Below, in pieces: positions 11,435-33,971 of a DNA stretch of 64,000 nucleotides. The first letter of the stretch is position 1, and each line of letters begins with the position of its first letter. Source of the DNA: Hydrogenophaga borbori (GTDB lineage Bacteria; Pseudomonadota; Gammaproteobacteria; Burkholderiales; Burkholderiaceae_C); NCBI RefSeq assembly GCF_003417535.1, contig NZ_QVLS01000005.1, positions 131,501-195,500 on the forward strand, in the 5' to 3' direction. Position numbers and translations under genes: made by a program. The notes beneath the pieces are model-generated. The model was given only the letters and a program-made list of their open reading frames with translations, had not been told where the DNA came from and searched no databases.

Positions 11435-11489
11435 CATTTCAGCAAAGGCTCACTAGCATTCGCCCACTTTCTTGTTCAGGAGCGATCAC

Positions 11490-13358
<1,869 letters not shown>

Positions 13359-13381
13359 GGCGCCGCGGATCGCTGATCGAT
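13359..13381. other. attTn7-like insertion site, glmS-proximal flank
   Basis: The 23 bp between the glmS stop codon and the first base of the transposon end. Canonical Tn7 inserts about 25 bp past glmS, so the position fits. If the insertion made a 5-bp duplication, the copy here is TCGAT (13377-13381); the matching distal copy next to an ACA end was looked for and not found in this window. Confidence 0.7.
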
Positions 13382-13447
13382 TGTTTCTGACAAATAAAGT
13401 CGAAAACAGCGAAATAGAGTCGAAAACAAAACAATAAAGTCGAAAAC
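13382..13447. repeat. Tn7-like transposon end with three TnsB-type binding sites
   Basis: The end starts with 5'-TGT and carries three copies of AGTCGAAAAC starting at 13398, 13418 and 13438, an exact 20-bp period; each is preceded by an A/T-rich AATA(A/G) element. The Tn7 right end is built the same way: TGT, a few bases, then contiguous sites with an AATAAAGTC core spaced about 20-22 bp. Packed sites resemble the Tn7 right end rather than the left end, where sites are spread out. Confidence 0.85.
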
Positions 13448-13636
13448 TACGGCAGCGACGCTGACATGGCCATCAACCTGAGTTCAGTCATTGACAGTTC
13501 TTCAGTTGGGGAGCTGTGCAGCGACTGCCGCTAGGCGCGTCTACACGTTGAACTCACGGTCTTGGCGTAAGAGCTGTCGTCCAAATGCTAGCCAATGGCA
13601 GCATACTGCTGAGAGCTTGCGCTATAGGGGTCGGGC

Positions 13637-14530
13637 ATGCATTTAGGAATTGAGCAACACACAGGACTGGTCTTTGAAGGCACGGGGAACCCCGACATTC
13701 CCGCCATGCCGATGCCAACGGTGACGCATGCGAAGTTCATCGATACTGCAGACGATTGGAAGGCGCTCCCGAGTCCTTCGGAGGCTTTTGGTCTCGTGTT
13801 CCGAGAGGATTCGTATGACCCGGTAAGCCGAACGCGCAGAGGCCGCCTCTATCAGCAAACCAGCGGTGCTCAGCCTTCGAGGCTTATCGTTTCCGCCCAC
13901 CCCCATGACCGCGGCTTGATTCCAGGCTACGACAAAGCAACCTACAAGTCGCTGTTCGTCTATACGTCTTGCTTCGAAATCCTACAGCGGCCGAACCAGG
14001 GCCAAGGTTCGGTTTTGGCGCTAGGGTCGTCGCGCGCAGCGTCAGCGTGGCGCGTCGTGCAAACGGAGGCGCTATACAGCGGCGCCGTGATGGTGACGCT
14101 TAAAGCGTTGTCAGCATTCAGCATCCTGCCTGAGCTCGACCTCAACAAGATCGACGAGCAGCTCCGACCTGCGGTCGCTCAGGCAATCGCGCGCGTCCTC
14201 GACTCCGCCTTCAAGGAGTCACCTGGCTCTGTCGTTGACAACTGCCGCGATGCCATGCAGGCGATTCTCTCCTCATGGCTTGCTCAGAGTGGCTCGCCCG
14301 ACACGATCATTGGCAGGGAGCTTGCGCAAGTCTCTGCGACTATAGAGGGTGCACCCTATGAGCGAATCTGCGTGGGTCACCTGGGCAAGGTGTGCGCGAA
14401 GCTGCACAGCCGGAACAAGAGCAATGCGCAGCGCCAAAATGGTTATCGACCCATCATGGAAGAGGACGCCGAGCTCGCCATTCATGCTGTTGGCTTCGCA
14501 ATCCGAGACCTTGAATGGGCGAAAGCCTAA
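13637..14530 (+). CDS. Hypothetical cargo protein at the transposon end
   Basis: 297-residue protein not assigned to a family. It looks soluble, with no signal peptide or membrane helix. The N-terminal half is Pro/Thr-rich with few secondary-structure cues; the C-terminal half (from ~150) is helical, with a C-terminal segment HLGKVCAKLHSRN and DAELAIHAVGFAIRDLEWAKA that reminds one, weakly, of the helical ends of abortive-infection proteins. It is the first gene inside the transposon end, transcribed away from glmS, 190 bp from the TnsB sites. Codon use is less GC-rich than the neighbouring glmS. Role unknown. Confidence 0.65.
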   Translation: MHLGIEQHTGLVFEGTGNPDIPAMPMPTVTHAKFIDTADDWKALPSPSEAFGLVFREDSYDPVSRTRRGRLYQQTSGAQPSRLIVSAHPHDRGLIPGYDKATYKSLFVYTSCFEILQRPNQGQGSVLALGSSRAASAWRVVQTEALYSGAVMVTLKALSAFSILPELDLNKIDEQLRPAVAQAIARVLDSAFKESPGSVVDNCRDAMQAILSSWLAQSGSPDTIIGRELAQVSATIEGAPYERICVGHLGKVCAKLHSRNKSNAQRQNGYRPIMEEDAELAIHAVGFAIRDLEWAKA

Positions 14531-14539
14531 AGCGGCCTG

Positions 14540-14754
14540 CAATTTCAACCTGCCCGCGCCTTGCGGCCTATTCAGTTCGAAGTCACTCCAGCCACCCGAG
14601 AGGCCGTGCAATCCTGGATCAAATTGGCCGGGTTGAAACAGAAGGCGCTCTCTTGCCCTGCTGCATGAACGAATCGCCGCACTTGGGGACTCGCCAGTAT
14701 GAACAGATCCTCGGGCGGCAGGTCGACAACCTGGGGCTGGACCGCGCGGATTAG
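14540..14754 (+). pseudogene. Fragment of a tyrosine-recombinase (phage-type integrase)
   Basis: Two reading frames encode adjoining parts of an integrase catalytic domain. The frame through 14567 reads PIQFEVTPATREAVQSWI-LAGLKQ and then stops; a second frame continues NESPHLGTRQYEQILG and DNLGLDRAD before a stop at 14754. These match the segment before the HxxR box of a common proteobacterial site-specific integrase family. The catalytic His, Arg and Tyr are absent, so it is a dead remnant and a trace of an earlier insertion in this slot. The following bases to 14887 hold no recognisable gene. Confidence 0.6.
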
Positions 14755-14887
14755 TCTTCGGCTTCGCAGCGGGTGTCGCCGGTCACATTCGGCCCGCGTA
14801 CTCACGCTGTTGGCGCGAAGCCACCATTGGACGCGGCAACCGGTGCTGACCCGTCTGGCCGTGTTAAGGCGGTTAGCCTCGCCTCCC

Positions 14888-16657
14888 CTATTCCTTGAGC
14901 CACGACTTTTTGATCCCCTCGAAGTTGAGTTGCTTCCACTCTTCCTTCCAGAGCTGGTAGTACGGAATATCTGTCGACGAGGGTGGAGGATCGCAGCGCT
15001 GCACCTGGACCAACGATGGCATCACCACCGACTCACCGATCAGAAGCGCCTCGCCTGCACCCAGGGTCGGCAACTTGTCGCACAGGTTACCGAGGGTGTC
15101 AGGCAACAGGCGGGCGACGTAACTCTGGTCGCTCGGGTTGGTCAAGCGCATCGCCAGGAAATTGCTGCACTGGGAGAAGATCGTCTCGGAGATTTCTGAC
15201 GGCCGCTGACTCGACAGAAGCAGCGTGACGCCGTACTTGCGCCCTTCCTTTGCAATGCGCTCGATCGAGAGCTTGGAAGCGCGAAAACGTACCAGGTCGC
15301 TGTTGGGCACGTACTTGTGAGCCTCCTCATAAACGAGCAGGAGCGGCGCGTCGGTATTGAACTGCTCTTTCGCCGCCGTGCGCATCACTTTGTAGTGATA
15401 TCCATATTCGAAAAGGATCCGCGAGATCAGTGACACGGTGATGCTCAGGACCTCAAACGGAACGCCGCTCAAGTCGACGATCGTGACGTTGGACTTCGTA
15501 TCGCCGTAGCCGATCAGGCTCATCAGAGTACCTTCCAGCGTGGCTGTATCCGCAGCCGGACCGAAGAGGAACTGCAGGCGGTCCTGCTCGACCTTGCCCT
15601 CGAACCGCGTGAAGAACTTGTCCAGTGTCTTGTCAGCGTAGCTCCCGCCCGTGATGCTTTGCGACTTGGTCGGATGAAAATCGAGTCGCTTAGAAAAGTA
15701 AAGATCCAAGCGCTGATCCGCCGTGAGCAGCAGCCCATGGCCACTATCAGTCTTGCCCTCAGTCAGCAACGCGTAGCTGCCGTCGTTCACCATGTACCGC
15801 GCCTCGTTCTTCGAGTTCACGGTTTCGTTCTTGATGTTGTACAGCGCGTTCAGCACTTCATGGATGTCGAACTTGAGAGGACTGTCGTAGAAGACGTTCT
15901 TCGCGCACTTGTTGTGGCGCTTCTTGTTCTCCGTGACCAAATGGCGAAACACTGCCGATTGGTTGTAGTTGTCGCGCTCGCCCGTATCCAGAAGCACCTC
16001 CTCCAGTTCTTCGCTGTTGAGCAGCCAGTAAGGCAAGGTCAGTGTGCTGGCATCCAGGAAGTTCGCGTCGGGGAATGCCGTCCGGTACTCGGAGTGGATG
16101 TCGAAGATGACGACGTGGGAGTTGTTCAGCGAGTAATCGCCGTCTTTCGCGCGCACTGCGGTCTGGATGATCTTGGCGATGGTGTGCGACTTGCCCGCGC
16201 CAGTGGAACCCACGACGGCAAGATGCTTGTTGAAGAACCGGTCCCCGTCGACGGGGACGGAGATCTTCTCGTTGGACACCAGCGCGCTGAATGCGAACTT
16301 CTTTGCCGGCTCAATCGAATCCTCGAAGATTTTCTTGATGTCTTCGTCCGTCGCCGGCGCCACGCCAGTGGGAGGGATGGTCAGCGTATCGCCGCCACGA
16401 ATGAACTTGCCGTCAGCGATGATTCCCAGCGGCAAGGCCTCGATGAGGTGACGACGCTCGCCGCTGGCAGTTACTTCGATGCAGAAGTTCTCGATGATCG
16501 CGATGAGCGCGCATTCTTCGATATCGGTGATGCGCAGATATGAGCCCACCTTGAGGCTCTTATCGTTTGCGAATGCCGAGATGTTGCCAACCGAGATCTT
16601 CACCTTGTCCGGGAAGACAGCAATCACTTCGGCCTTGATGTCATTGGAATCGTTCAT
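14888..16657 (-). CDS. herA: HerA-like hexameric ATPase/translocase
   Basis: 589 residues, normal length for HerA. The N-terminal HAS-barrel domain (residues ~1-110) is followed by a FtsK/HerA RecA-like core: Walker A GSTGAGKS at 150-157, an FDIHSEYR motif near 185-192 typical of HerA, Walker B LLLVYEEAHKYVP near 439-451, and SSQRPSEIS with the C-terminal arginine region. HerA rings pump DNA to a partner nuclease (NurA in archaea; DUF4297 or SIR2 proteins in bacterial anti-phage systems). It is the last gene of a four-gene operon and its ATG overlaps the nuclease stop codon by 4 nt (16654-16657), implying translational coupling and a stoichiometric complex. Confidence 0.92.
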   Translation of the reverse strand: MNDSNDIKAEVIAVFPDKVKISVGNISAFANDKSLKVGSYLRITDIEECALIAIIENFCIEVTASGERRHLIEALPLGIIADGKFIRGGDTLTIPPTGVAPATDEDIKKIFEDSIEPAKKFAFSALVSNEKISVPVDGDRFFNKHLAVVGSTGAGKSHTIAKIIQTAVRAKDGDYSLNNSHVVIFDIHSEYRTAFPDANFLDASTLTLPYWLLNSEELEEVLLDTGERDNYNQSAVFRHLVTENKKRHNKCAKNVFYDSPLKFDIHEVLNALYNIKNETVNSKNEARYMVNDGSYALLTEGKTDSGHGLLLTADQRLDLYFSKRLDFHPTKSQSITGGSYADKTLDKFFTRFEGKVEQDRLQFLFGPAADTATLEGTLMSLIGYGDTKSNVTIVDLSGVPFEVLSITVSLISRILFEYGYHYKVMRTAAKEQFNTDAPLLLVYEEAHKYVPNSDLVRFRASKLSIERIAKEGRKYGVTLLLSSQRPSEISETIFSQCSNFLAMRLTNPSDQSYVARLLPDTLGNLCDKLPTLGAGEALLIGESVVMPSLVQVQRCDPPPSSTDIPYYQLWKEEWKQLNFEGIKKSWLKE

Positions 16658-17889
16658 GCCTGCATGACCTCCTGAAGCAGATAGGCACTGTCACTCTTGA
16701 TCGAATGGAGCCCTGTGCCCTTGGGCAGGAGGGCTGAGTCCAACGGCGAGCCTTGGTGAAAGTCGTAGACCTCGACGAGCGAGCCTTTGCAGGCAGCCAT
16801 GGTCGGCGCTAGCTCGTGCTCATCGGGGACGAATTTGAGCGTCCAGAGTCTTTCTTTGGTGGGGCGCTCCGCCAGCATCTCGGGTGAGAAAGCCGAACCG
16901 TGGAAGGGATAGCCGTCAATGAAGGCCACGCCCTGCCTCCAAAGGCTCTCCTTGAGCTCAACCAACTGTTCGGGCGTCAGGCCTCGCAGCAGCACGTAGG
17001 GGCAAAACCGATCGGTAGCAGGCGTCCGCATATGCTCCGTGTGCGAGAACTTCCGCCCAAGCCCGGCGAGCATGCGACTGGCCTTGGCCACTTCGAACTC
17101 TTCGCCCATCTCGATCACGAAGAATCTCGAAGCCTGGGGCAGCTTAGTCGTGCGATGAGAGAAGTACTTTCGACGGACCATCCTCGCGAAGTACTCGCGC
17201 CCCATGTAATCCCTCAGCCAGGCGTTGAAGACCACCTCCTTGCGGTTGATTGCCTTCAAGAACTGCGCCTTGGTTACCTTTCGCTGCGCCACGTCCGCTT
17301 CGATTGCGAGTCCCTGAACGACGTTGATCGCCATCGGATAGAAGAAGATCCGCGCATCATCGCTGTTGCACCCGGAGATCTCGCGCACCATCAGTTTGAT
17401 CAACGTCTCCTTCTGAGCGTCATAGGACGGCGCGCTCACGTTGATGTCCAGCAGCGCGAGAAAGTCGGCCAGCTGTTCGTCGGTGAGCACCAGTTCTTCG
17501 TGCACTTTGTGGACCTTCTTTTCCTTCGTGAAGGTAAGAAAGTGTTCCTTCACGAAGTCGCCCGTCAGGGGAAGCGTGAGCTTGTGCTGCCCGCTTTGGT
17601 AATAGCCGTGAAGCCGGTACCGGAACATTTGGTCTCTGGAGCAGCCCGCGGCATGGAAATGCCGCAGCATGTGCACGACCGCGTCCTTAATCACCGAGTG
17701 GTTGTACTCCGTGCCTTCGTAGTACTTGCACTGCACGAAGGCGCTCTCACCCGGATCATCCAGGTCTATGTCCTCCACGCCTTCGACCGTCACGCTGCCA
17801 TGAGGGGACGCCTCGAGCAGACTCACGATCGTCTGGTCGAACTGGTAGAAGTAGCCTTTGATCGTCGCGATCGCGCTGCGGTCTTTCAC
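16654..17889 (-). CDS. DUF4297/Cap4-like PD-(D/E)xK nuclease
   Basis: 411 residues. The N-terminus has the hallmarks of the DUF4297-type dsDNA endonuclease domain: GYFYQFDQTIVSLLE (12-26), acidic strand VTVEGVEDIDL (33-43) and the FVQCKYYEG strand (51-59), giving E36/E39, D40 and Q53-x-K55 as the likely metal-site residues. The long C-terminal part has no motif recognised here and may contact HerA. It overlaps herA by 4 nt and starts 36 bp after the SMC-type ATPase stop. A nuclease paired with HerA is the arrangement of DUF4297-HerA defence systems; the family call rests on pattern recognition only. Confidence 0.72.
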   Translation of the reverse strand: MKDRSAIATIKGYFYQFDQTIVSLLEASPHGSVTVEGVEDIDLDDPGESAFVQCKYYEGTEYNHSVIKDAVVHMLRHFHAAGCSRDQMFRYRLHGYYQSGQHKLTLPLTGDFVKEHFLTFTKEKKVHKVHEELVLTDEQLADFLALLDINVSAPSYDAQKETLIKLMVREISGCNSDDARIFFYPMAINVVQGLAIEADVAQRKVTKAQFLKAINRKEVVFNAWLRDYMGREYFARMVRRKYFSHRTTKLPQASRFFVIEMGEEFEVAKASRMLAGLGRKFSHTEHMRTPATDRFCPYVLLRGLTPEQLVELKESLWRQGVAFIDGYPFHGSAFSPEMLAERPTKERLWTLKFVPDEHELAPTMAACKGSLVEVYDFHQGSPLDSALLPKGTGLHSIKSDSAYLLQEVMQA

Positions 17890-17925
17890 TGTCTATCCTC
17901 GGGTGATGCTCAACGGCGGTCGGCC

Positions 17926-20601
17926 TCACGGCGTAGAGGGTTCGCCGCCGCCGTAGCCAGGCGCATGAGATAGCTCGCGTGCGGCAACGCCAAGGTCCTG
18001 CCAGGCGTGCGGGTGGCAGCTAAACACCAGGATCTGATGTCTTTGAGCGGCGTCGTAGAGCACCCGCTTCATCTGGCCCAGTCGATCTTTGTCGGTGTGA
18101 ACCAGGGCGTCGTCTAGGATGAGCAACGTGGGCTTGCCAGCCTCTTGCAGAAGGTCCGCGTAGGCCAGCCGCGCGACGACACCCATCTGCTCCCGTGCCC
18201 CGACGCTGAGTTCCTCGAAATCACCGGTCTCCGCGCCGTTGGTGCCGACTCGGGTGATGCGTCCCGGTGATAGGTCATCACTCACCTCGATGCCCGCGCC
18301 CGGGAACAGGATCTGTAGGTAGTGGTTCAGGTGTCGCTGAAGTGGCGCGCGCAGGCGTCGTGCCAGCGCGGCGCGCTTCTCTGTGAGCAGCTTGAGAAGA
18401 TGGCTCAGCGCCTTGGCCCGGCGTTCGAGCTCGGTGCACCGTCTCTCCATGTGGTCGAGCTCGCGCTGTTTGTCCGCGGCGGCCTCTTCCAGCCCCAAGG
18501 CGCCCTTGGCCTCCAGGTCCGCCTCCAACCGGATGATGTCGCTCCCGCGTTGGGCGTACGCGCTCTCAAGCTGCTTGGCGCTCCGCTCAAACCGCTCGAC
18601 GTCCTGCTGCAGAAGTGCAACGTTGAGCGTGCGCAGTTGCTCGGCGAGTGCTTCCACACCTGCCCGCGCCGTGGTCTCGTTCGCAAGGGCATCGGTCAGG
18701 GCATGGCTGGCGTCCGCTTTCCTTTTGGCGCGAAGTGGGTCGGCCAGTGTCGCCTGGGCCGCTGCCAGCTCTTCGCTCGCGACGCTGAGCAGGGCCATCG
18801 CTTCGCTCACCGCGAGCTTGGAGTCGTTCAGCTGGGACGTCGCATCTTCCAGTATGACCTTCGCCGTGGATTCATCCGATTCCGCTTGCGACACGGATAC
18901 GCCGGCAGTTTCAGCCCCGACAGGTTCCGTCAAGTTCTGCAGTGCTTGCTTCGCCTCCGTCAGCTTGGTCGACAGCGCCGCTATGTCCACCGCCAAGGCG
19001 GCCACCCCCTTCGGAGCGTGGGCCTCCAAGACGGATTTCGCCGCCTTGGCCTCCGCCGCGCGCTGCACGTGCTGGCGCTCACGCTCTTCCGCAGCCGCCA
19101 AGTTCGCCACACCCAGGCGCTGGAGCAGCTCCGCCAGGACTTTGCGCTGTTGATCACGATCCGCAATCAGGCTTTGAAGGCCCTCACCGCCCGGCAGCAC
19201 CGTGATGCGCCCCACCCCCTCAATGTCGATGCCCGTGCGCTCCACCACGGTGAGGCGGTCGGTGGCATTCACCTGGACACCGGCGACCTGCACCTTCGCG
19301 CTGGGCTGGAGGCGGAACTCCAGCGCGGTTGATACCGCATCCAACCGAGCCTGCGCGGTGCGCAGGCTCTCCGTGACTTCGCGCAGGCGCTTGAGCTCCG
19401 CGCCGGGCATGGCGAGCGACAGCGTCTCGGCCTGCAAGCTTGTTAGCTCTTCCTGCTTGAGCTGCGCTTGGCGGTGACTCCGGCTCAGGGCTTGTACTTG
19501 GGCCGCGAGCTCGGTCACCGCCTTCTCCTGGGCCTGCCAGGTCGCCACTTGGCGCGCCGCTGCCAGTCGGTCGCGCGCCCTCATGCTCGCGTGTTCAGCC
19601 TGCGCATGGCGCGGCTCCCAGGCCTGGAGCTGACCGTTGGCCTGCGCCAGCTTGTCCTGCGCCGCCTCCAGCTTCTCCTCGCGCAGCTTCACCGCGTCGT
19701 CGTCGCGTGCCATGAGCTGCAGTTGTTGGCGCTGGGCGTCAACCTGCGCCGAAGCCTGCTTGAGCAGCAACTCTTGCGCGGTCCTCCGCTGGGCAAGCCC
19801 CAACGCGTCGGCCAGCTTGACCTGCGCTTGCTCAAGTTGCGCGCGCAGGGTCAGCCAGGGCCGAGCCTCGCCGTCTTGCCCATGATCAAGACGCAATGCC
19901 GCCAGCCGGTCCACGGCGATTCGGTACGCGTTAATCTCCACGCGCAATAACTGCAGCTCTTCGAGCAGCGCTGTGCGGCGCTTGATCGCTTCCCCGTATG
20001 CACCGCGCGGTGCCTCGGTGGACGGCGTCAGCAGCTGATTGCGCTCGGTCTCAACCGCCTTGATGACCTCATCGCCGCTTGTGGCCGCGAGTTCGCCAAG
20101 GGAGTCCCCCATCGCGTTGCGCAGATGATCGCTTGCGAACCCGACGACCTTGGCAATTTCATGCGACGTGCCCTGCTTAATCCAGAGCAACCCGGGGATA
20201 CCCATGTGCTCGGGCGAGCTGGCGCCCTTTCCGGCGAAGCTGAAGCCCAGCAGCTCTCCCAGGTGATCCTCGGCCTCTGCTCCTTCCAGCGTCTTGCCAT
20301 CGATGATGAGCTGGCATCGCTTCTTGCCCAGAAACGCCTTGCTCAGCCGAGCGGGTTTCCCGCCGAGTGCGAAAGCGATCTCCACAGACGGCGTGGCGGA
20401 GCTGTCGCTCCACGGACGCAAGCCACTGATCGCGCTCGACTTGTGCCGCTCGAAAAACGCGGCCCGGATGGCTTCGGCTACGGTGGACTTCCCCGACTCG
20501 TTCGGGGCGACGAACAGGTTCAGTCCGTCAGCGAAGTCGCACAACTCCAGCGGGGCCCGAAAGCGCTTGAAATTCTCGATTCGCACCCGCTTGAGCTTCA
20601 T
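17926..20601 (-). CDS. SMC/Rad50-like ATPase, YhaN-type
   Basis: 891-residue DNA-repair-type ABC ATPase. Walker A VAPNESGKST at 31-40 after the typical IENFKRFR start; ABC signature LSVGAREQMG at ~798-807; Walker B TLLILDDALVHTD at ~825-837; His-switch region CHPH near 863. Between them are two long coiled coils (Gln/Ala/Leu/Glu-rich, ~200-400 and ~480-770) separated by a beta-rich insert near 430-475. No CxxC zinc hook is visible, unlike Rad50/SbcC, which makes it YhaN-like. It overlaps the SbcD-like gene by 4 nt, so the two should form an Mre11-Rad50-type complex. Confidence 0.88.
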   Translation of the reverse strand: MKLKRVRIENFKRFRAPLELCDFADGLNLFVAPNESGKSTVAEAIRAAFFERHKSSAISGLRPWSDSSATPSVEIAFALGGKPARLSKAFLGKKRCQLIIDGKTLEGAEAEDHLGELLGFSFAGKGASSPEHMGIPGLLWIKQGTSHEIAKVVGFASDHLRNAMGDSLGELAATSGDEVIKAVETERNQLLTPSTEAPRGAYGEAIKRRTALLEELQLLRVEINAYRIAVDRLAALRLDHGQDGEARPWLTLRAQLEQAQVKLADALGLAQRRTAQELLLKQASAQVDAQRQQLQLMARDDDAVKLREEKLEAAQDKLAQANGQLQAWEPRHAQAEHASMRARDRLAAARQVATWQAQEKAVTELAAQVQALSRSHRQAQLKQEELTSLQAETLSLAMPGAELKRLREVTESLRTAQARLDAVSTALEFRLQPSAKVQVAGVQVNATDRLTVVERTGIDIEGVGRITVLPGGEGLQSLIADRDQQRKVLAELLQRLGVANLAAAEERERQHVQRAAEAKAAKSVLEAHAPKGVAALAVDIAALSTKLTEAKQALQNLTEPVGAETAGVSVSQAESDESTAKVILEDATSQLNDSKLAVSEAMALLSVASEELAAAQATLADPLRAKRKADASHALTDALANETTARAGVEALAEQLRTLNVALLQQDVERFERSAKQLESAYAQRGSDIIRLEADLEAKGALGLEEAAADKQRELDHMERRCTELERRAKALSHLLKLLTEKRAALARRLRAPLQRHLNHYLQILFPGAGIEVSDDLSPGRITRVGTNGAETGDFEELSVGAREQMGVVARLAYADLLQEAGKPTLLILDDALVHTDKDRLGQMKRVLYDAAQRHQILVFSCHPHAWQDLGVAARELSHAPGYGGGEPSTP

Positions 20602-21722
20602 GCGCAGGCTCCTTTCGCTGGTGCTTGGTCGTCCAGGATCCGCGCCAGCGCTAGCAGCGCGTCACGCGCCAGTTCGGGCTCTGCGCTGGCTTGCTGCTCG
20701 CGCAGCTCCTGCAGGGCCTCGCCCACAAAGCCGTCGGCACGCAGCGTTTGAATATCTTCCTCGGTTGGCTCGAGCCTGAGCGCCTCAGCGTTCCACAGGA
20801 TGGCCCGCGCCTTGGCGCGCGCCGCCCCGAGCGCGGCCGTCAGCTTGCGGTGTCCCGCCAGATTGCAGGTGCCGGACAGGCGCAAGTGAAGGACATCATT
20901 GCCACTCACTCCGTCTAACGCTTGCACCACTTCGTCGACGTCTGAATCGACGGCCATATGCTGCTCGAGCTGACGCCAGTTGAATTTTCCGGTGGGTACC
21001 GCTGTGACAATAGGCTCGAGTGACGTCGACTCTATGGCCACGAGCAGTGCCTGACCCGACTCGTTGGCTTTAAAGCGGTCCGATTCCGGCGTGCCGGCGT
21101 ACCAGGTCTTGCTATCCACCTGCTTGGTGCCGTGCCAGTCTCCTAGCCCCAGGTAAGCCAGTCCCGCGCTCTGCGCCCGGCCCGCCGCGATCGGATTGGT
21201 CGAGTCCACGTCTGCGGGTAGGATGCCCTGCACACTGCCGTGCGCCAGACCGACTCGCGGCAGGTCGTCCGATGGAACGTGCGTCGCGAACCATTCGGTG
21301 AGGTCGGCATAGGTATGGCGCTGGGTCAGCGGTGCCGGCAGCAATGTGAACTTGCCTGCCACCACAAAGGGCCTTGGCTCTAGGCACACGATGACGTTGT
21401 CGGGGATTGCCCCCAAGCGATGTGCCCGGTTCCACACCGACTCCGCCAGCGCAGCATCGTGATTACCCGGGATCAGGACCCAGGTCCCGGTAAAGCCTTG
21501 CATGGCGTTGAACAGCCGCCGAATAGTCTTCTCGGCCACCGTCTGGGCGTCAAACACGTCGCCAGCGACCAGCACTGCGTCCACGCCTCTATCGGCCGCG
21601 ATACTGGCCAGGCGCTCCACGGCAGCGAATCGTGCCTCAAATAGAGCGGCCGCGTCGTCGGTCTCAAACTGCGCGAACACTCGACCGATCTGCCAGTCGG
21701 CCGTATGCAAAAATGAGATCAA
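20598..21722 (-). CDS. SbcD/Mre11-like metallophosphoesterase
   Basis: 374-residue calcineurin-like phosphoesterase of the DNA-exonuclease branch. Motifs: HTADWQIG (6-13), AGDVFD (53-58), IPGNHD (84-89), LAHGSVQ (159-165) and LGDWHGT (193-199). In the first motif the usual D-x-H is D9-x-Q11, so one metal ligand differs from SbcD and Mre11; the other ligands are present. The C-terminal ~130 residues would be the capping/ATPase-binding part. First gene of the four-gene operon; its promoter must lie in the 403-bp gap up to the tniQ gene. Predicted partner is the overlapping SMC-type ATPase. Confidence 0.88.
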   Translation of the reverse strand: MISFLHTADWQIGRVFAQFETDDAAALFEARFAAVERLASIAADRGVDAVLVAGDVFDAQTVAEKTIRRLFNAMQGFTGTWVLIPGNHDAALAESVWNRAHRLGAIPDNVIVCLEPRPFVVAGKFTLLPAPLTQRHTYADLTEWFATHVPSDDLPRVGLAHGSVQGILPADVDSTNPIAAGRAQSAGLAYLGLGDWHGTKQVDSKTWYAGTPESDRFKANESGQALLVAIESTSLEPIVTAVPTGKFNWRQLEQHMAVDSDVDEVVQALDGVSGNDVLHLRLSGTCNLAGHRKLTAALGAARAKARAILWNAEALRLEPTEEDIQTLRADGFVGEALQELREQQASAEPELARDALLALARILDDQAPAKGACA

Positions 21723-22125
21723 GTCATCCCCCTGATCGCTTGATTTGATGGAATTCCCTTGCAGCGGCGACTTGATGCGCCGTTCACCACCAGTCTAACG
21801 TTTTGAAACACTGCACGGCAGTGCACTGCTCGGACGAATCGCGAGAGGTTTCTCCGTTCGTTCGAGCACGAAATCAGGGGTTGTTTCGCGGCGTTGTGAC
21901 CAATTTTTCAGCGGTCTGTTTGGTGTTACTGACGACCCGTTTTGGTCAACTACGGCCTTTCGGCCTCGAAGCGCAGGTGGCTGCACCCAGTCTCGAGCGG
22001 CCGATGCTCAACAACTCGCGCTGCGACCTCCTTGATATGGGATGAGATCCATAGGAACATAGGGCGCGCGCATGGCTCTTGCTCCCATGCCCCTCCCTGG
22101 CGACGGATCGTCGACCTGAGCTGCT
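21723..22125. other. 403-bp divergent intergenic region
   Basis: Must contain the promoter of the four-gene defence-like operon (minus strand) and of the tniQ/tnsD gene (plus strand). No convincing coding sequence. A 7-bp inverted repeat TGACCAA (21897-21903) and TTGGTCA (21942-21948) and a short GGCC-TTTC-GGCC hairpin near 21957-21968 are visible; no strong sigma-70 promoter was picked out. Confidence 0.5.
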
Positions 22126-23868
22126 ATGGCCATGGAGCTTCTGCCATTCAATTCTGCGGTTCTTCCTTGGTTGACGGGCGAGACCCTGTTCAGCCTCTGC
22201 AGTCGGCATCATCGCCTCTGGGGATTTTCGAACTCATCCCAGTCTACGGAGATTCTTTTCGGTTCACCGAGGCGAGGGACGCAACATGACTTTCCCTGCG
22301 CGTTGGATGTGTTCGCGGATCGAACGCAAGGGCTTCTTGGTTCGGCGAACGAGATTGCCAGACAGCGTACTGTGCTGAAGTTCTACGCTCCGTTTCGAGG
22401 CGCGGGTGAAGTGCAGGATGCAGTTGTCATGATGCGAAGCGCCTCCGTGGCACATCTGAAGTATCGATTGGGGCTTCTGACGAGTCGGTTTCGTGCGCAT
22501 CACCCGCTCAAGTCTTGCCCTCAGTGCAGGCATCGTGATCTCGTGGAGTGTGGTTGGGTCTATTGGCGAGGCCATCTTCAATACCCCGGGGTCTGGATGT
22601 GCCCGGAGCACAAGATTCCTGTGCAGGAGTCGGCGCTGAAAGCGACCGGGGTGGCTCGTTTCCAGTGGCATCTTCCTGCTGAGGAAGATCAACACAGTCT
22701 TGAGGCTTTGAGAACGGACTGGATGCAAGCAAGTGCACTCAAGCTCGCAACCATGACCGTCGATCTGGTGGAGTCCATAACGGAGGATGGCTGGTTGAGC
22801 CGGCATCGCTTCCAGGCCGCGGTGAGATCCCGCATGCTGGCCAATGGCTGGCTTCTTACATCGGGCAGGCTGCGGCTCGAAGATGCCGCAAGCTCCTTCC
22901 TTCAGCATGTACGACCACTTCGACGTATTCCGGAACTAGCAGCTCTGCCGAGCTCCGTTGAAGAGGCGAAATCACAATTGGGTCGACTTCTGCGGCCGAT
23001 GAGAAGTGGAACGCATCCGCTTCGATGGATGGTCGTCGCGAGCTGGCTGTTTGACGACGTGGATGATCTTCGAGCGGAACTCGCGCATCCCAGCGAAAGG
23101 GACTGTTGGCCGGAGGTGAACAAGGAACTCAGTCAGGGGGCAACTGATAAGGAGGACGTGCGCGTTCGACTGGTGGCGTTCATGAGCGAAGGGGCGTCTG
23201 CCACATCAGCAGCGCGTGAGTACGGAGTGGACGTCAAGACCGCCATGGCATGGGCAGCATCTTCTGGGATTTCCACGAAGCGTAGGTCGAAGAAGCTGAC
23301 GGCGGAAAGCCTGCTTTCAATCTTGCAGGCGCTTCAATTTGGCGACGACAGAAATGAACTCGCTCAGCGGTATAGCATTTCGAGTGGGACCATCACTCGC
23401 ATCCTCATGACCGAGGTGGGGCTGCACGCCCAATGGGTCGCTGCTAGGAAAGCGAGATCCCGAGAGCGCGCACGTTCGACGTGGCTATCCCTTCTGGCAA
23501 GTGGCGAACATCAGGGCTTGAAGTGGATGAGAAAACTGGAGCCAGCCGCTTATGCGTGGCTGTATCGCAACGACACCGCCTGGCTTCGGGCCAACCTTCC
23601 GCCTGCTCCGAAAGAAAGTGCCCGCAGGGCGAGCCCAGCGGTTCGTTGGGATGTCCGTGATTTGGAGCTCAGTGCACGTGTCTTTCAGACTGCGCTGTCG
23701 CTGTCGAAGAACGGGGCAACAACGTTGCGACTCTGGCAGTTGTACCAGGTCCTTCCAGAGCTGAAGGCGAAACTAGGTCAACTACAACGGCTGCCCTTGA
23801 CGCAGCGAGCGCTCGAGACCGTCCTTACAAGACGCGCAACTTCCACTTCCCCGAGCGAGCTACTCTGA
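22126..23868 (+). CDS. tnsD: TniQ/TnsD-family target-selection protein
   Basis: 580 residues. The N-terminal TniQ domain starts ELLPFNSAVLPWLTGETLFSL and contains a zinc-binding site C131-x2-C134 and C159-x2-H162 around WVYWRGHLQYPGVW, the family hallmark. The C-terminal ~250 residues include one or two HTH-like regions (SATSAAREYGVDVKTAMAWA; NELAQRYSISSGTITRILM), as in full-length TnsD, which reads the attTn7 site at the end of glmS. Its length is a little above Tn7 TnsD. Given the insertion 23 bp after glmS, this is the best candidate for the glmS-reading subunit. Start at 22126; the ATG at 22132 is equally possible. Confidence 0.85.
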   Translation: MAMELLPFNSAVLPWLTGETLFSLCSRHHRLWGFSNSSQSTEILFGSPRRGTQHDFPCALDVFADRTQGLLGSANEIARQRTVLKFYAPFRGAGEVQDAVVMMRSASVAHLKYRLGLLTSRFRAHHPLKSCPQCRHRDLVECGWVYWRGHLQYPGVWMCPEHKIPVQESALKATGVARFQWHLPAEEDQHSLEALRTDWMQASALKLATMTVDLVESITEDGWLSRHRFQAAVRSRMLANGWLLTSGRLRLEDAASSFLQHVRPLRRIPELAALPSSVEEAKSQLGRLLRPMRSGTHPLRWMVVASWLFDDVDDLRAELAHPSERDCWPEVNKELSQGATDKEDVRVRLVAFMSEGASATSAAREYGVDVKTAMAWAASSGISTKRRSKKLTAESLLSILQALQFGDDRNELAQRYSISSGTITRILMTEVGLHAQWVAARKARSRERARSTWLSLLASGEHQGLKWMRKLEPAAYAWLYRNDTAWLRANLPPAPKESARRASPAVRWDVRDLELSARVFQTALSLSKNGATTLRLWQLYQVLPELKAKLGQLQRLPLTQRALETVLTRRATSTSPSELL

Positions 23869-23908
23869 TTGCGCAGCCCGGCCGCTTTCCTGTCTTTGTG
23901 CATGATGG

Positions 23909-23938
23909 TTGACATGCAAATATGCGCTAGATTATGCT
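23909..23938 (+). promoter_or_regulatory. Sigma-70 promoter of the small HTH gene
   Basis: TTGACA (23909-23914) and TATGCT (23933-23938) with an 18-bp spacer. The expected start of transcription falls at about 23945, the A of the ATG, so the transcript may be leaderless. Repeated ATGCA/GCAT words overlap the promoter and could be operator half-sites. Confidence 0.6.
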
Positions 23939-23944
23939 TTATGC

Positions 23945-24289
23945 ATGCTCGAAACAGCGTCGCTCGCCAGGTTGCTCAACGCTAGGGAGGCGTGCAGACA
24001 GCGCGGCATTTCCCAGGCGCAAATTGCGTCTGCCGTTGGTGCCAGTCAGTCGCAGGTAAGCCGGATCTTGAACGGGCGAGGGCTGCGTAGATCTCGCTTG
24101 CTTGAAGATGTGTGCCTCTACGTCGAGCGCTTCGAAGTCGGCGTGACGGCCGATGCGGTGAGGGGCAACGAAGAGCTTGTCGACGCGTTGCGTTCTGCGT
24201 GGGACGGATCGGCCGGGCACGCAAAGGCATTGTCAACCGTCATTCGGTCCCTCTCTGCATTGCGACCTACGCCGATCAGTCGGTTGTAG
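23945..24289 (+). CDS. Small XRE-type HTH regulator within the tns region
   Basis: 114 residues containing a lambda-Cro/XRE-like HTH at ~10-45: ACRQRGISQAQIASAVGASQ followed by SQVSRILNGRG. The C-terminal half has no recognised domain. It lies between the two tniQ genes on the same strand, 76 bp after the first and 18 bp before the second, so it is probably co-transcribed with the second and may control transposition or target-selector expression. The ATG at 23945 is preferred over a TTG at 23909 because the TTG is the -35 box of a near-consensus promoter. Confidence 0.75.
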   Translation: MLETASLARLLNAREACRQRGISQAQIASAVGASQSQVSRILNGRGLRRSRLLEDVCLYVERFEVGVTADAVRGNEELVDALRSAWDGSAGHAKALSTVIRSLSALRPTPISRL

Positions 24290-24307
24290 GCTAGAAGGGC
24301 CCCCAGA

Positions 24308-25228
24308 TTGCTCGTCGTACCTGCCCCCAAGCCTGGCGAGCTTGCCATCGGCTATTGGGGGGCCGTCCTCCGGTGGAACGGATTGAGTCGGAACGTCGCG
24401 GATGGACGTCAAGCGTTACGCCTATTCACAGGGCAATCGGTCAACTTCTGTGACGTACCTCGCGTCGAACTCTTGGCGAAGATCGCAGCAATGGACCTTG
24501 AGTCATATGTTCGGCATCACACAATGTTTCCTCTTCGTCGTGCAGTGACAAAAGACGTCTCCGGAGGGATGCTGGGGCAAGGAAAGTACCGTGCTTCCAT
24601 GATCAGCGGGGGCACGTTGCGAGTGCCAAGACCGCAAGCTTATCTTTGCCAAGAATGCGTGCGCGAGGATCTTGGCTTTCACGGCTATGCCTACTGGCGT
24701 CGAGAACACCAACTGCCTGGGCAATGGAGATGTGACAAACATGGCGCCACACTGTCTCGCGTTGGCATAAGCCAGGCGGAGGCGTTCTACGCCTCGCCGG
24801 CCCAGATGCTGCCGCAGGCCAAGGTTGAGAGTGACTTGATGTTCGAGAAGGATGCGACGGATTGCGCGACGTACCGGTTCTTCGATATCTGTTCGCACCT
24901 GCTAGGCGGCGTTGTTGTCCTCCCCCTCGATGCCGTCTTTTCTGCAGCCAAGTATCGAGCCGAAGATCTTGGGATCAATACTGAAGCCTGCACCCTTGTC
25001 CGTCACCTGCTAAAACTAGAAGAAGTCCAGGCCTGCTATGACCGGCGATGGCTCGATGCCTTGAGTCAAGAAGGACTCACGAGACATGTGTTCAGCGATG
25101 ACGTCTCAGGGAGTGCGATGTTCTCTACGCTGTCGGCCGCCCTTGTATTCGCGGCCTTGTACGAGACGAGTGAAGAAGCGATTTCAGGGATGGTTCTCTC
25201 AACAAGAGAGTGCACGAAAAGTCATTGA
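24308..25228 (+). CDS. tniQ: Second, short TniQ-family protein
   Basis: 306 residues. Family start VVPAPKPGELAIGYWGAVLRWNG and the zinc site C114-x2-C117 and C142-x2-H145 around YAYWRREHQLPGQW. It lacks the long HTH-bearing C-terminus of the first TniQ protein, resembling the short TniQ adaptors that bridge the AAA ATPase to a DNA-binding partner. A TTG at 24308 is the likely start because the family N-terminus begins immediately there and no ATG or GTG offers an equivalent. Convergent with tnsC, 99 bp apart. Two TniQ proteins in one element usually means two target pathways. Confidence 0.82.
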   Translation: MLVVPAPKPGELAIGYWGAVLRWNGLSRNVADGRQALRLFTGQSVNFCDVPRVELLAKIAAMDLESYVRHHTMFPLRRAVTKDVSGGMLGQGKYRASMISGGTLRVPRPQAYLCQECVREDLGFHGYAYWRREHQLPGQWRCDKHGATLSRVGISQAEAFYASPAQMLPQAKVESDLMFEKDATDCATYRFFDICSHLLGGVVVLPLDAVFSAAKYRAEDLGINTEACTLVRHLLKLEEVQACYDRRWLDALSQEGLTRHVFSDDVSGSAMFSTLSAALVFAALYETSEEAISGMVLSTRECTKSH

Positions 25229-25327
25229 CTCAGATTCGCATAGTTGCTGATAGGTAAACCGGAAAGCAATGGACGGGGCACTGGGGGGACTGCAACAGTG
25301 GTAGCGCCTTCCCAAGACAAGTGAGAC

Positions 25328-26593
25328 TCACGAGAACCGACTCCAAAACTCCGACCAGAATGGCGTGTCGCGCAGCACGAGGTCTTCATACATGGCCATC
25401 TTGGATGGGCTTCCTTCCCGAATCGCCGCGACGGCTGGTGCGAGCGGCTCGAGCCAGGTTTGAGCTGCCGTGATGAAGTCTTCGAGCCGCAAGCTGTCAT
25501 CCGCGCGTTCGAAGGCAACGCGGTGAGCAGCGATCCACAGTGCGATGATGACTCGTTGAATGCCTGCGGTCAGATCAATGATCAGCTTGGCAAGGTTGTC
25601 GTCGATCGGGAGCTTCTTCTGAACATACTGATACCGCGCAAGCACGTCCAGAAACTGGGACCTAAATCTTGGCGCAGTGTGATCGGAGAACTGTTCGAAC
25701 CGATGGTAACCGGCAGTATTCAGTCGCTGCAAGGTACTCAAGCGCGAGGTCAGAGCACCGATTCCATCCGGCGTACCGGACACAAGCACTGGTATCTGGC
25801 CTGTGTTGACGAGATTGAGGAACCAGCGCACGACGCGATCTTCTACGATGCTGATTTCCGGCCGTTCTGCGGTGCCAGCGCGGTTGACTCGTTGCTTCAG
25901 GGACGAGATCTTGAAGAGATTCTGAATTTCATCGAGATGAAGAATCCCAAGGAAGCCAGACACGGCGACTTGCCGCCATTCGTCCAAAGCTCGCATTCCA
26001 TCTGGAATTCGTTCCTTCGCCAGCCAGTTGTCGAATCGCCGACCGCCAGTGGCCTCGTCCCACGCAAGCATCAGCGCACGCGCAAGGTCCGATGAGCGCC
26101 CAGAGGGTGGAGCCTCTACGGACAGCCACAGGACTTGGGTCAACCCCCCGATGACCTTTGGGAATCGTTCATGACGAATGACCTGAGGGCCAAAGGCATG
26201 TAGGCATCGAAGGCAGGCCTGTGTTTTGCCGACACCAGACAGCCCCTCTACTGCTGCCGCGGTTGCTTGTGGAATTCGAATGCCGGCGCGAGTCGCATCT
26301 CCACTAACTGAGGCCCAGGTAGACGCTTGTCTGGGGTCTCTGTAGCTGTATCCCTGGCGTACCATCAGATCGATTGAATGAAACAGGCGTCGCTCGACCA
26401 ACGTCGGGACATGCAAATCACGAACAGACATCAAGTCATGCAGACGAACATGCTTCGGAGTCGAGCCCAGATCTGTGGGTTCCGGTGGCAGATAGAGCAG
26501 GGAACTGAGAGTGGCGTCCGACGATTGAATGCCTGGCAAACACTCCGTGAGGAGGTTGCCCGCGTATGGGTTTGAAGGGTCCTCTGCCTTCAT
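25328..26593 (-). CDS. tnsC: TnsC-like AAA+ transposition regulator
   Basis: 421 residues; the ATPase that relays target choice from TniQ/TnsD to the TnsA-TnsB transposase. Walker A EGLSGVGKT at 116-124, Walker B GILHLDEIQN at ~216-225, and a sensor-1-like VLVSGTPDGIG stretch. The N-terminal ~100 residues match the TnsC/TniB lead-in (HVPTLVERRLFHSIDLMVRQGY). ATG 26593 directly abuts the tnsB stop codon (26594-26596), consistent with one tnsABC transcript. Confidence 0.9.
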   Translation of the reverse strand: MKAEDPSNPYAGNLLTECLPGIQSSDATLSSLLYLPPEPTDLGSTPKHVRLHDLMSVRDLHVPTLVERRLFHSIDLMVRQGYSYRDPRQASTWASVSGDATRAGIRIPQATAAAVEGLSGVGKTQACLRCLHAFGPQVIRHERFPKVIGGLTQVLWLSVEAPPSGRSSDLARALMLAWDEATGGRRFDNWLAKERIPDGMRALDEWRQVAVSGFLGILHLDEIQNLFKISSLKQRVNRAGTAERPEISIVEDRVVRWFLNLVNTGQIPVLVSGTPDGIGALTSRLSTLQRLNTAGYHRFEQFSDHTAPRFRSQFLDVLARYQYVQKKLPIDDNLAKLIIDLTAGIQRVIIALWIAAHRVAFERADDSLRLEDFITAAQTWLEPLAPAVAAIREGSPSKMAMYEDLVLRDTPFWSEFWSRFS

Positions 26594-28882: not shown

Positions 28883-29772
28883 TTCCACGAGGTCCTCCGC
28901 ATCTCGATAGGGTTGTAGGCCAGAAAGGCCTCGCGTTCTATCAAGCGGAAGGGAACATGAAACTTGATAGGTCGACGGAGATCGACGGACAGAGGGCCGT
29001 GTACGACGGATTGCCACAGAGCCTTCTGCGCTTGCGGCTCCGAGCCGAGATGCTTGGTGAGGAGATGAATCAACTCAGTAATGGATCTGAACTGATTGAG
29101 CTCGACGAGCTTTGATGCGAACGTCCTCTCCTGCTCGGTGGTATCACGGTGGCGCGTCCAACATGCGACAGTTTTTAAGTTGTCCGCGACGGCGGGGTGA
29201 AAGACCTCGGGAGTGATGAGGAGCCAGTCGATGCCTCTGCATTCCCAGTACGCCCTCTCGACCTCAAGTAGATTCATCTTGCGTTTTGGTAATCGGGCAT
29301 CTTGCTTGCAGGCCACCGCTGTTGCGTTGAAGCGCCCATCTCCTCCACGCCTAACCACGAAGAAGTCGGTGGACATGCGCCACAGAGCTGTGGCGCCATC
29401 GCCGCTGGTTCTCGGGTGTTTGACACCCAGCTGCAGACAAAGTCCGACCGTCCCTGGAAATAGCCTAAGTGGGTTGCCTTGGTCGTAGTCGAGCAGCGGA
29501 TGATTGGATGGTTCGATGGATAGCCGATACTGCTCAAGGCAGTCCGTCACATCGGTCAGCATCCGGATGAAGTACAGGCCAACGAGTTCTTGATCGCTCA
29601 ACAAGTGCCGTTGTCGGCCGTTCCAGATATGGAGGTGGCTTCTTCCAACGGAAGCCGGATCACCGCGCCCGACTTGGTGCCAAGGGACATAGAGGTCGTA
29701 GGTGCCTGATCCCCTGCCTTGGCGTTCGAAGCGTTCCAGCACCTTGGGCGTAAAGCGTTTCGTCGTTCTCAT
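28879..29772 (-). CDS. tnsA: TnsA-like endonuclease
   Basis: 297 residues; restriction-endonuclease-fold subunit that cuts the 5' ends of the transposon so that transposition is cut-and-paste. The likely catalytic triad is E62 (SDQELVGLYF), D136 (RMSTDFFVV) and K156 (AVACKQD), in the same order and similar spacing as in Tn7 TnsA. The C-terminal part would contact TnsC. ATG 29772 is preceded by GGGGA at good spacing. First gene of the tnsABC operon, and it faces away from glmS, opposite to classical Tn7, where tnsA starts right beside the glmS-proximal end. Confidence 0.85.
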   Translation of the reverse strand: MRTTKRFTPKVLERFERQGRGSGTYDLYVPWHQVGRGDPASVGRSHLHIWNGRQRHLLSDQELVGLYFIRMLTDVTDCLEQYRLSIEPSNHPLLDYDQGNPLRLFPGTVGLCLQLGVKHPRTSGDGATALWRMSTDFFVVRRGGDGRFNATAVACKQDARLPKRKMNLLEVERAYWECRGIDWLLITPEVFHPAVADNLKTVACWTRHRDTTEQERTFASKLVELNQFRSITELIHLLTKHLGSEPQAQKALWQSVVHGPLSVDLRRPIKFHVPFRLIEREAFLAYNPIEMRRTSWK

Positions 29773-29806
29773 GCAATCCCCGAGAAAAAGGAGAAACGAA
29801 AGGGGA

Positions 29807-29880
29807 TTGACGAGACCGCTTGACGACTCGTACACTGAAGCAGTCCTGCAAAGACTTCTTCGGAATCCCCGGAGAACCGG
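29807..29880 (+). ncRNA. Candidate small RNA divergent from tnsA
   Basis: A plus-strand promoter TTGACG (29807-29812), 18-bp spacer, TACACT (29831-29836) is followed after about 45 bp by a perfect intrinsic terminator (29881-29911). Expected transcript about 29843-29911, roughly 70 nt, with no start codon leading to a meaningful peptide. It begins about 70 bp upstream of the tnsA start, on the opposite strand. Function unknown; the call rests on promoter and terminator geometry only. Confidence 0.4.
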
Positions 29881-29911
29881 CGGCGACCCGTTACAGCGGG
29901 TCGCCGTTTTT
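29881..29911 (+). terminator. Intrinsic terminator of the candidate small RNA
   Basis: Perfect 10-bp stem CGGCGACCCG/CGGGTCGCCG with a 6-nt loop, followed by a T5 run. Orientation is plus strand, where no protein gene ends nearby, which is why a short RNA is suspected. Confidence 0.75.
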
Positions 29912-30666: not shown

Positions 30667-30765
30667 GTGTGGGACCTCGCGCCTTGATCGGAACTTCTGT
30701 GTTTGACGGCTCGGAAAGTATGTGACCAGGTCGCTGGTTGAGATCAAGAAGTTGACATGGCAATA

Positions 30766-32879: not shown

Positions 32880-33051
32880 GTTCGCCTCCAAAAAGGTGGA
32901 ACGGTTGCGGTGCAGGTCCTGCGGTGTTGCAGGACGTTCGGAGAGCAACCCCCGAGTCGTGGGACAAAGCGCCCACGAAGTCAGGCTACGTCACGTTGCA
33001 TCGCGAAGCAAGCTTCGAGTTCGAAGTGGCCGACGAACGCGAGCGGACGAC

Positions 33052-33103: not shown

Positions 33104-33147
33104 TTAGAGCGCGAGACACTTGTTGTCGCTCCGTTCTTTTGCCCACC

Positions 33148-33966: not shown

Positions 33967-33971
33967 GGCAG

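What the first reader, a model, noticed from the sequence alone, without database searches (positions are those of the whole stretch)
14888..21722. Four-gene Mre11 / Rad50 / nuclease / HerA operon as Tn7-like cargo
Seen: four consecutive minus-strand genes, two of the three junctions being 4-nt overlaps, encoding an SbcD/Mre11-like phosphoesterase, a YhaN/Rad50-like ATPase, a DUF4297/Cap4-like PD-(D/E)xK protein and HerA. Known: archaea carry mre11-rad50-herA-nurA for DNA end resection, and DUF4297-HerA alone is a validated two-gene anti-phage system. Inference: this operon joins both modules in one bacterial mobile cassette, so it may detect or process phage or plasmid DNA ends with the Mre11-Rad50 pair and degrade them with the HerA-nuclease motor. 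I do not know of a described system with this exact four-gene set.
Basis: partly seen in the sequence, partly recalled or inferred. Interest (0 to 1): 0.92.

Follow-up and report, generated by a model that had tools for sequence, protein, structure and literature searches.

The report
Mre11-Rad50 joined to HerA-nuclease defence
A 57,459-base jumping element, present with only a handful of differences in two other bacterial genomes, carries a four-gene operon that joins a known kind of anti-phage DNA-cutting machine (HerA plus DUF4297) to a Mre11-Rad50-like pair that would likely detect or open DNA ends for it, and family trees indicate that such pairs were joined to this machine more than once.

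Summary
Four minus-strand genes (14888-21722) encode an SbcD/Mre11-like phosphoesterase, a Rad50-like ATPase without a zinc hook, a DUF4297 nuclease and HerA. DUF4297 and HerA pass NCBIfam's cut-offs for antiphage DUF4297 and HerA and keep the catalytic residues of the published two-gene abortive-infection system. The operon is cargo of a Tn7-like transposon whose ends I found: 13382 to 70840 (far end outside the window), TCGAT duplicated on both sides, 23 bp behind glmS. A second genome holds the same 57,459-bp element with 3 mismatches and its own duplication (GGTGA), so it moved recently. The four-gene set recurs on a Burkholderia plasmid, in Paraburkholderia and on three sphingomonad plasmids. 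A reordered set follows Shango genes in Phaeobacter and other defence genes in Methylotuvimicrobium. Most DUF4297-HerA loci examined lack the pair, and the pairs fetched from Burkholderiales genomes stand alone. Trees of both halves reject a single joining. Best reading: a new variant of DUF4297-HerA in which a captured Mre11-Rad50-like module senses or prepares DNA ends. That function is inferred; two modules merely stacked remain possible. Ten searches of an open-access library found no description of the set.

The parts
20598..21722 (-). MRE: SbcD/Mre11-like metallophosphoesterase, first gene of the operon, TTG start
   Evidence: PF00149; sbcd TIGR00619 48.9 bits, below its cut-off 77.65; AlphaFold model, mean pLDDT 77, the 50 Foldseek matches listed are SbcD/Mre11 or chains of Mre11 complexes; D9-W-Q11, D55, N87-H88-D89, H161, D195-W-H197
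17926..20601 (-). SMC: Rad50-like ABC ATPase, 4-nt overlap with MRE
   Evidence: AAA_23, AAA_15; Rad50 hits in PDB; Walker A, LSVG signature, Walker B with D-D, no CxxC; model with coiled coil and a small beta domain at about 430-470
16654..17889 (-). DUF4297 (PD-(D/E)xK type, distantly LmuA/Cap4-related) nuclease, GTG start
   Evidence: NF042945 over cut-off; PDB 8xav residues 3-384, 237.5 bits; LmuA model 39.8 bits; D40, Q53, K55 present
14888..16657 (-). HerA ATPase, 4-nt overlap with DUF4297
   Evidence: NF042944 over cut-off; PDB 8xau residues 2-588, 612 bits; Walker A K156
13377..13381 (.). 5-bp target-site duplication TCGAT (second copy follows 70840, outside the window)
   Evidence: junction comparison
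13382..64000 (.). Tn7-like transposon, glmS-side end at 13382; the element goes on to 70840 (57,459 bp in all), 6,840 bp past the window's end
13389..13447 (+). three repeats of about 20 bp (...AAARTCGAAAAC), likely TnsB sites at the glmS-side end
   Evidence: 3 matches, 0.10 expected
11472..13358 (+). glmS, the Tn7-type attachment gene (a later ATG is probably the true start)
   Evidence: PF01380, GATase domains
13637..14530 (+). cargo ORF of 297 aa between the transposon end and the operon, unknown
   Evidence: no family in Pfam, PADLOC, NCBIfam (E 0.01) or PHROGs (E 0.001)
22126..23868 (+). TnsD/TniQ target selector
   Evidence: PF15978 E 5.8e-49
24308..25228 (+). second TniQ
   Evidence: PF06527
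25328..26593 (-). TnsC-like ATPase
   Evidence: AAA_22; position
26594..29017 (-). TnsB-position transposase
   Evidence: position between TnsC and TnsA; no Pfam hit at E 0.01
28879..29835 (-). TnsA-like endonuclease
   Evidence: PF08722

Best explanation
The four genes are predicted to form one defence system in which the Mre11-Rad50-like pair likely senses or opens DNA ends and thereby would license or feed the HerA-DUF4297 motor-nuclease, which would then degrade DNA and abort the infection. Steps: (1) shown for homologues in print, not here: DUF4297 and HerA assemble into one complex that cuts dsDNA, hydrolyses ATP and protects E. coli from phage lambda by abortive infection; both active sites are needed, the complex is toxic, and its trigger is unknown. 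(2) Shown here by sequence: the window's proteins keep those catalytic residues and the coupled gene order. (3) Shown here: MRE-SMC pairs, elsewhere free-standing, sit beside DUF4297-HerA at four separate places on the HerA tree. (4) Inferred: SMC binds DNA ends or end-like structures as Rad50 does. (5) Inferred: MRE nicks or trims the end, or acts mainly as a binding partner, since two positions that are His in SbcD-type proteins are Q11 and D195 here. (6) Inferred: this is the trigger or the loading platform for HerA-DUF4297. The element that carries it would gain by guarding its host against phages and rival elements.
For: DUF4297 and HerA over equivalog cut-offs, solved homologues over most of their length, D40/Q53/K55 and the Walker A lysine kept (published D40A/Q53A/K55A and K157A mutants lose defence, PMC11291478 section 13). 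Same four-gene order in Burkholderia aenigmatica, Paraburkholderia dinghuensis, Sphingobium RAC03, Polymorphobacter, Sphingomonas panacis. 28 of the 120 best DUF4297 clusters share the exact longest-contig length with an MRE and/or SMC cluster; 40 shifted controls average 0.85, maximum 5. MRE tree: the four-gene label needs at least 2 changes; one clade rejected, p-AU 3.9e-45; SMC tree p-AU 2.2e-5; HerA tree needs 4 changes, one clade of all 12 pair-bearing rows rejected, p-AU 5.5e-8. MRE and DUF4297 distances correlate in 21 pairs, r 0.81, 0 of 2000 permutations as high. dN/dS well under 1 for the four genes.
Against: Most DUF4297-HerA loci examined do without the pair: 3 of 45 genome loci with enough flank have it, from two sources only; the close relative L011 (Ideonella) has 10 kb upstream without it. 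None of the 26 standalone pairs from Burkholderiales genomes with enough flank has DUF4297 or HerA beside it. A 36-nt gap with a GAGG ahead of the GTG (judged by eye) separates the two overlapped pairs. In roseobacters and Methylotuvimicrobium the set stands next to other defence genes, so neighbourhood alone could explain it. MRE's presumed metal site is altered. No complex was modelled and nothing was tested in cells.
Confidence: 0.5

Rival explanations
1. Two independent modules stacked side by side: a complete two-gene DUF4297-HerA defence system and a free-standing Mre11-Rad50-like repair or defence pair that travel together but do not work together.
For: Both pairs exist alone and were mostly seen alone. 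Only the genes within each pair overlap; the joint between pairs is a gap with a likely ribosome site. Stacks such as Shango + DUF4297-HerA + pair (by annotation also 83, 84) and type III restriction + PDC-S06 + DUF4297-HerA + pair show that this neighbourhood collects modules; other loci have AbiE genes or a DUF2130 gene in the same upstream slot.
Against: The order MRE-SMC-DUF4297-HerA in two separately built lineages, repeated joining, similar spacing within the window's type (36, 35 and 37 nt in window, B. aenigmatica and P. dinghuensis; 57-85 nt in the sphingomonads) and correlated divergence.
Confidence: 0.33
2. A repair system: bacterial counterpart of archaeal mre11-rad50-herA-nurA that resects DNA ends for recombination.
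For: Same trio Mre11, Rad50, HerA plus a nuclease; the archaeal operon is described in PMC12977600 (passages) and PMC2288612 (listing with start of abstract).
Against: The nuclease is DUF4297, not NurA; HerA fits the antiphage model far better than the repair HerA models (931 against 111 and 118 bits); the operon is rare, accessory and mobile; homologous DUF4297-HerA destroys host DNA.
Confidence: 0.07
3. The pair serves the transposon, processing its ends or gaps during transposition.
For: It lies inside a Tn7-like element next to tnsD.
Against: The same operon sits on a plasmid beside an integrase gene and on plasmids with no Tns genes in the stretch shown, and the pair is free-standing elsewhere.
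Confidence: 0.03
4. A plasmid or rival-element exclusion system working like Wadjet or Lamassu rather than an anti-phage system.
For: Carried by a transposon and by plasmids typed as conjugative; the SMC model matches SMC-family chains, Lamassu and JetABC chains among them; DUF4297 weakly matches an LmuA model.
Against: No direct evidence; published DUF4297-HerA acts on phage lambda.
Confidence: 0.07

Closest known systems
DUF4297-HerA two-gene anti-phage system (PDB 8xav/8xau; PMC11291478)
   Same: Both proteins over the NCBIfam cut-offs, homologous over most of their length, same catalytic residues, adjacent and overlapping genes
   Different: Two more genes upstream in the operon, an Mre11-like and a Rad50-like one
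Archaeal mre11-rad50-herA-nurA operon
   Same: Mre11, Rad50, HerA and a nuclease together
   Different: Nuclease is DUF4297, no zinc-hook motif in the Rad50-like protein, HerA of the antiphage model, mobile and accessory
Lamassu (LmuA-LmuC-LmuB)
   Same: Rad50-like ATPase together with an LmuA-related nuclease
   Different: Has an Mre11-like phosphoesterase and HerA; SMC's best LmuB match covers only residues 1-50 as best stretch; no LmuC among the PADLOC matches listed for the four proteins
SbcCD and YhaO-YhaN Mre11-Rad50 pairs
   Same: Overlapping phosphoesterase and coiled-coil ATPase genes, Mre11-type fold
   Different: Below the sbcd cut-off; D-x-Q and GDWH where the roseobacter and Methylotuvimicrobium relatives have D-x-H and GHxH; no CxxC; those relatives also have a longer ATPase of 1130-1149 aa, one of them annotated as YhaN
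Tn7-like transposons with defence cargo (PMC8649781)
   Same: Tns genes, insertion behind glmS, 5-bp duplication
   Different: Among the 20 further cargo ORFs scanned, those with hits are mostly acyl-CoA and branched-chain transport genes; the paper's main text has no Mre11, SbcC, Rad50, SMC or DUF4297 (term search)

Membership tests
DUF4297-HerA system | DUF4297 protein over NF042945 cut-off | tested here: met
   476.4 bits, cut-off 300
DUF4297-HerA system | HerA over NF042944 cut-off | tested here: met
   931.4 bits, cut-off 850
DUF4297-HerA system | Catalytic D40, Q53, K55 and Walker A lysine | tested here: met
   all present; HerA K156
DUF4297-HerA system | Adjacent, same strand, coupled | tested here: met
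   4-nt overlap
DUF4297-HerA system | Large DUF4297-HerA assembly with dsDNA nuclease activity | not testable with these tools
   needs purified proteins
DUF4297-HerA system | Phage protection by abortive infection | not testable with these tools
   needs cells
Archaeal mre11-rad50-herA-nurA operon | NurA nuclease | tested here: not met
   no Pfam hit at E 0.01; NF042945 instead
Archaeal mre11-rad50-herA-nurA operon | Rad50 zinc hook CxxC | tested here: not met
   no CxxC in SMC
SbcCD | SbcD over TIGR00619 cut-off | tested here: not met
   48.9 bits, cut-off 77.65
Mre11-type phosphoesterases | Mre11/SbcD fold | tested here: met
   the 50 matches listed are SbcD/Mre11 or chains of Mre11 complexes, probability 1.00, TM by query length 0.38-0.49
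Mre11-type phosphoesterases | Usual metal ligands | tested here: inconclusive
   D9, D55, N87, H88, H161, H197 in 42 of 42; Q11 in 38 of 42 (His in 4), D195 in 40 of 42 (His in 2); that these are ligand positions is recalled
Lamassu | LmuB and LmuC present | tested here: not met
   LmuB match 36.9 bits, best stretch residues 1-50; no LmuC in the matches listed for the four proteins, SMC's list being cut at 25 of 29
Tn7-like transposon | tns genes, attachment behind glmS, 5-bp duplication | tested here: met
   no Pfam hit for the TnsB-position protein

The most novel reading that the evidence does not exclude
Bacteria have several times rebuilt, from different parts, the archaeal four-part set of Mre11, Rad50, HerA and a nuclease, and turned it into immunity: a Mre11-Rad50-like pair is an interchangeable DNA-end sensor that plugs into HerA-DUF4297 and also sits beside a RecB-like nuclease, and it is the missing trigger for the otherwise toxic HerA-DUF4297 complex.
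Probability: 0.35. Interest if true: 0.85.

Novelty: new variant of a known kind. Interest (0 to 1): 0.68.

Why it matters
What triggers DUF4297-HerA is an open question in the paper that solved it. A natural variant that carries a DNA-end-recognition pair in the same operon makes it testable: compare the four-gene operon with and without the pair, and with two-gene relatives. It would also bear on whether archaeal HerA-NurA with Mre11-Rad50 serves defence rather than repair, which a 2026 paper raises. Separately, the carrier is a precisely bounded 57-kb transposon with near-identical copies at two independent insertions.

Tried and rejected
Phage origin of the set: no DUF4297 match in the phage collection; one DUF4297-HerA locus without the pair and five weak MRE matches in viral contigs. 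Archaeal-type repair operon: nuclease and hook tests not met. Lamassu membership: not met. The first search for the far transposon end by its repeat inside the window failed because the end lies outside. A promoter scan upstream of MRE found none. DUF4297 in whole genomes: 3 of 399 at order level, 3 of 369 at class level, the own genome included: too rare for a contingency test. One search found the SMC gene at 100% in G882, whose contig has the same length as L008's (525,373), so it is probably the same genome and is not counted as a further one. Papers: 10 searches showed no description of the four-gene set; 7 papers in the library name DUF4297. I read sections 13 and 14 of PMC11291478, passages of PMC8649781, PMC10586767, PMC12977600, PMC12839542, PMC11514479 and PMC10952713, and the outline page with abstract of PMC12799240; the others only as listings.

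Rows dropped or unlabelled: in the first HerA tree loci with short flanks were labelled as lacking the pair (5 changes); one search repeats the count with 14 rows uncounted (4 changes). The MRE clade test leaves out the 4 reordered rows and 10 rows of unknown context; the SMC tree leaves out the reordered rows, rows without an SMC sequence, and L165 and L087. The trees are quick searches with long-branch warnings.
Full report
OBSERVATION. Searches confirm the four genes, their strand, order and spacing. The named catalytic residues exist. MRE and SMC are remote from solved proteins by sequence. Their models (MRE mean pLDDT 77; SMC pLDDT 76 but pTM 0.43) match Mre11/SbcD structures and SMC/Rad50-type chains. 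The whole-chain SMC fit is poor, so only head and coil type are supported.

TRANSPOSON. The operon is cargo of a Tn7-like element: TnsA, an AAA_22 protein in the TnsC position, TnsD and a second TniQ by Pfam, TnsB by position only. DNA comparison with the genomes of L008 (a Burkholderiales MAG) and L009 (a Hydrogenophaga MAG) shows an abrupt change, in 500-base steps, from 66-93% identity in and before glmS to 99.8-100% inside the element, continuing to 70840. In L009's genome the element has the same 57,459 bp with 3 mismatches. The window's copy is flanked by TCGAT twice, 23 bp behind the glmS stop codon; L009's copy by GGTGA twice, 24 bp behind it. These are two independent insertions of one recent element. 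In L008's genome the copy has 7 mismatches and 1 gap over 57,279 bp and lacks about 34 bp near the far end; its glmS-side junction lies inside the end of glmS and shows no duplication, which is unexplained. The window's genome is a draft of 37 contigs and the other two are MAGs by title. I scanned 20 further cargo ORFs between 33972 and 63124; those with hits are mostly acyl-CoA metabolism and branched-chain transport. The last 6.8 kb of the element were not annotated.

DISTRIBUTION. Of 67 genome-contig loci, 65 gave a DUF4297 profile hit over 90 bits, 60 had HerA beside it and 45 had at least 4 kb upstream and 6 kb downstream; 3 of these 45 carry the pair: L008, L009 and L010. Of 20 plasmid records with a DUF4297 match I looked at 14; 8 carry a pair: B. 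aenigmatica, Sphingobium RAC03, Polymorphobacter and S. panacis in the window's order, Phaeobacter, Pseudosulfitobacter, Yoonia and Methylotuvimicrobium with the pair behind HerA. In the protein database, 28 of the 120 best DUF4297 clusters share an exact longest-contig length with an MRE and/or SMC cluster, against 0.85 on average in 40 shifted controls, maximum 5. Equal contig length shows linkage, not adjacency, though 8 of the 28 contigs are under 11 kb and the operon needs 6.8 kb. Conversely, MRE is in 23 of 399 Burkholderiales genomes at E <= 1e-30 and in 12 of 100 genomes of the family at E <= 1e-90, the own genome included in both. Of those 33 other genomes I fetched 26 regions, one of them (L148) too short downstream; with G1043 that makes 26 usable pairs, with about 3 kb or more upstream and 4 kb or more downstream, none with a DUF4297 or HerA profile hit beside it.

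HISTORY. In the MRE tree (65 rows) the window's type of four-gene MRE is nested among standalone Burkholderiales pairs, and the sphingomonad type lies among sphingomonad plasmid pairs that stand alone or directly follow a TM0106 RecB-like nuclease gene. One clade of the 24 four-gene rows is rejected for MRE (p-AU 3.9e-45) and of 21 for SMC (2.2e-5). The HerA tree needs four changes of the label when loci with short flanks are not counted, and rejects one clade of all 12 pair-bearing rows (5.5e-8) and of the 8 rows in the window's order (2.3e-6). Groups were set by gene context, not by the trees; the trees are quick searches with some long branches. Losses of the pair could explain part of the HerA pattern, but not the placement of the MRE and SMC genes. 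Within the window's type MRE and DUF4297 diverged together (r 0.81, 21 pairs), which shared host history could also produce in part.

MECHANISM. Published: DUF4297-HerA protects E. coli from lambda by abortive infection, needs both active sites, leaves cells without DNA, is toxic, and its trigger is unknown (PMC11291478, sections 13 and 14). Rad50 complexes recognise DNA ends, and Lamassu pairs a Rad50-like ATPase with effectors that include Cap4 nucleases (PMC10586767 passages). Putting these together, I commit to the pair as sensor or loader for HerA-DUF4297. MRE keeps D9, D55, N87, H88, H161 and H197 in 42 of 42 aligned rows, but has Q11 (38 of 42) and D195 (40 of 42) where SbcD-type proteins have His. 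The Rhizobium and Agrobacterium pairs keep the first His; the Phaeobacter and Methylotuvimicrobium ones keep both. SMC lacks CxxC and has a small beta domain at the tip of the coil in the model. Whether MRE cuts DNA is therefore open.

RIVALS AND VERDICT. Stacking of two independent modules is the main rival: in Phaeobacter the set directly follows Shango genes (SngA, SngB and SngC models matched; the two other roseobacters show the same order by annotation), and other loci have AbiE or DUF2130 genes in the same upstream slot. I place the finding as a new variant of DUF4297-HerA. I found no description of the four-gene set in ten searches of the open-access library; most subscription papers and preprints are not covered, and large computational surveys may list it in supplements I could not read. 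A 2025 Science paper describes repeated capture of a nuclease-protease pair by unrelated defence systems (PMC12799240, outline page with abstract); the present case would be a similar pattern with a DNA-end module.

Noticed in passing
window 13382-64000 and on to 70840 in G000:C33: 57,459-bp Tn7-like element nearly identical in three genomes, with two independent insertions behind glmS shown by different target duplications; cargo with Pfam hits is mostly acyl-CoA metabolism and branched-chain transport
   Followed up: yes
L202 (genome of L008): The glmS-side junction lies inside the end of glmS, without a target duplication, and the copy lacks about 34 bp near its far end
   Followed up: partly
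window 13637-14530: 297-aa cargo ORF with no family hit, found only in copies of this element among the loci held (tblastn)
   Followed up: partly
L173, L175 (Sphingobium and Sphingomonas plasmids): The same kind of Mre11-Rad50-like pair directly follows a TM0106 RecB-like nuclease gene: another possible nuclease partner
   Followed up: partly
L079, L177, L178: Shango genes (models matched in L079; by annotation in L177 and L178, where L178's TerB gene is split by an IS3 element) followed by DUF4297-HerA and an Mre11-Rad50-like pair
   Followed up: partly
L076, L086, L118; L019, L078: AbiE genes, or a DUF2130 gene, lie directly upstream of DUF4297 or of the pair
   Followed up: no
window 20598-21722 and relatives: Q11 and D195 replace His at two Mre11 positions in standalone and operon copies alike (38 and 40 of 42 rows)
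   Followed up: partly
window 17926-20601: Rad50-like protein without CxxC; small beta domain at the coil tip in the model
   Followed up: partly
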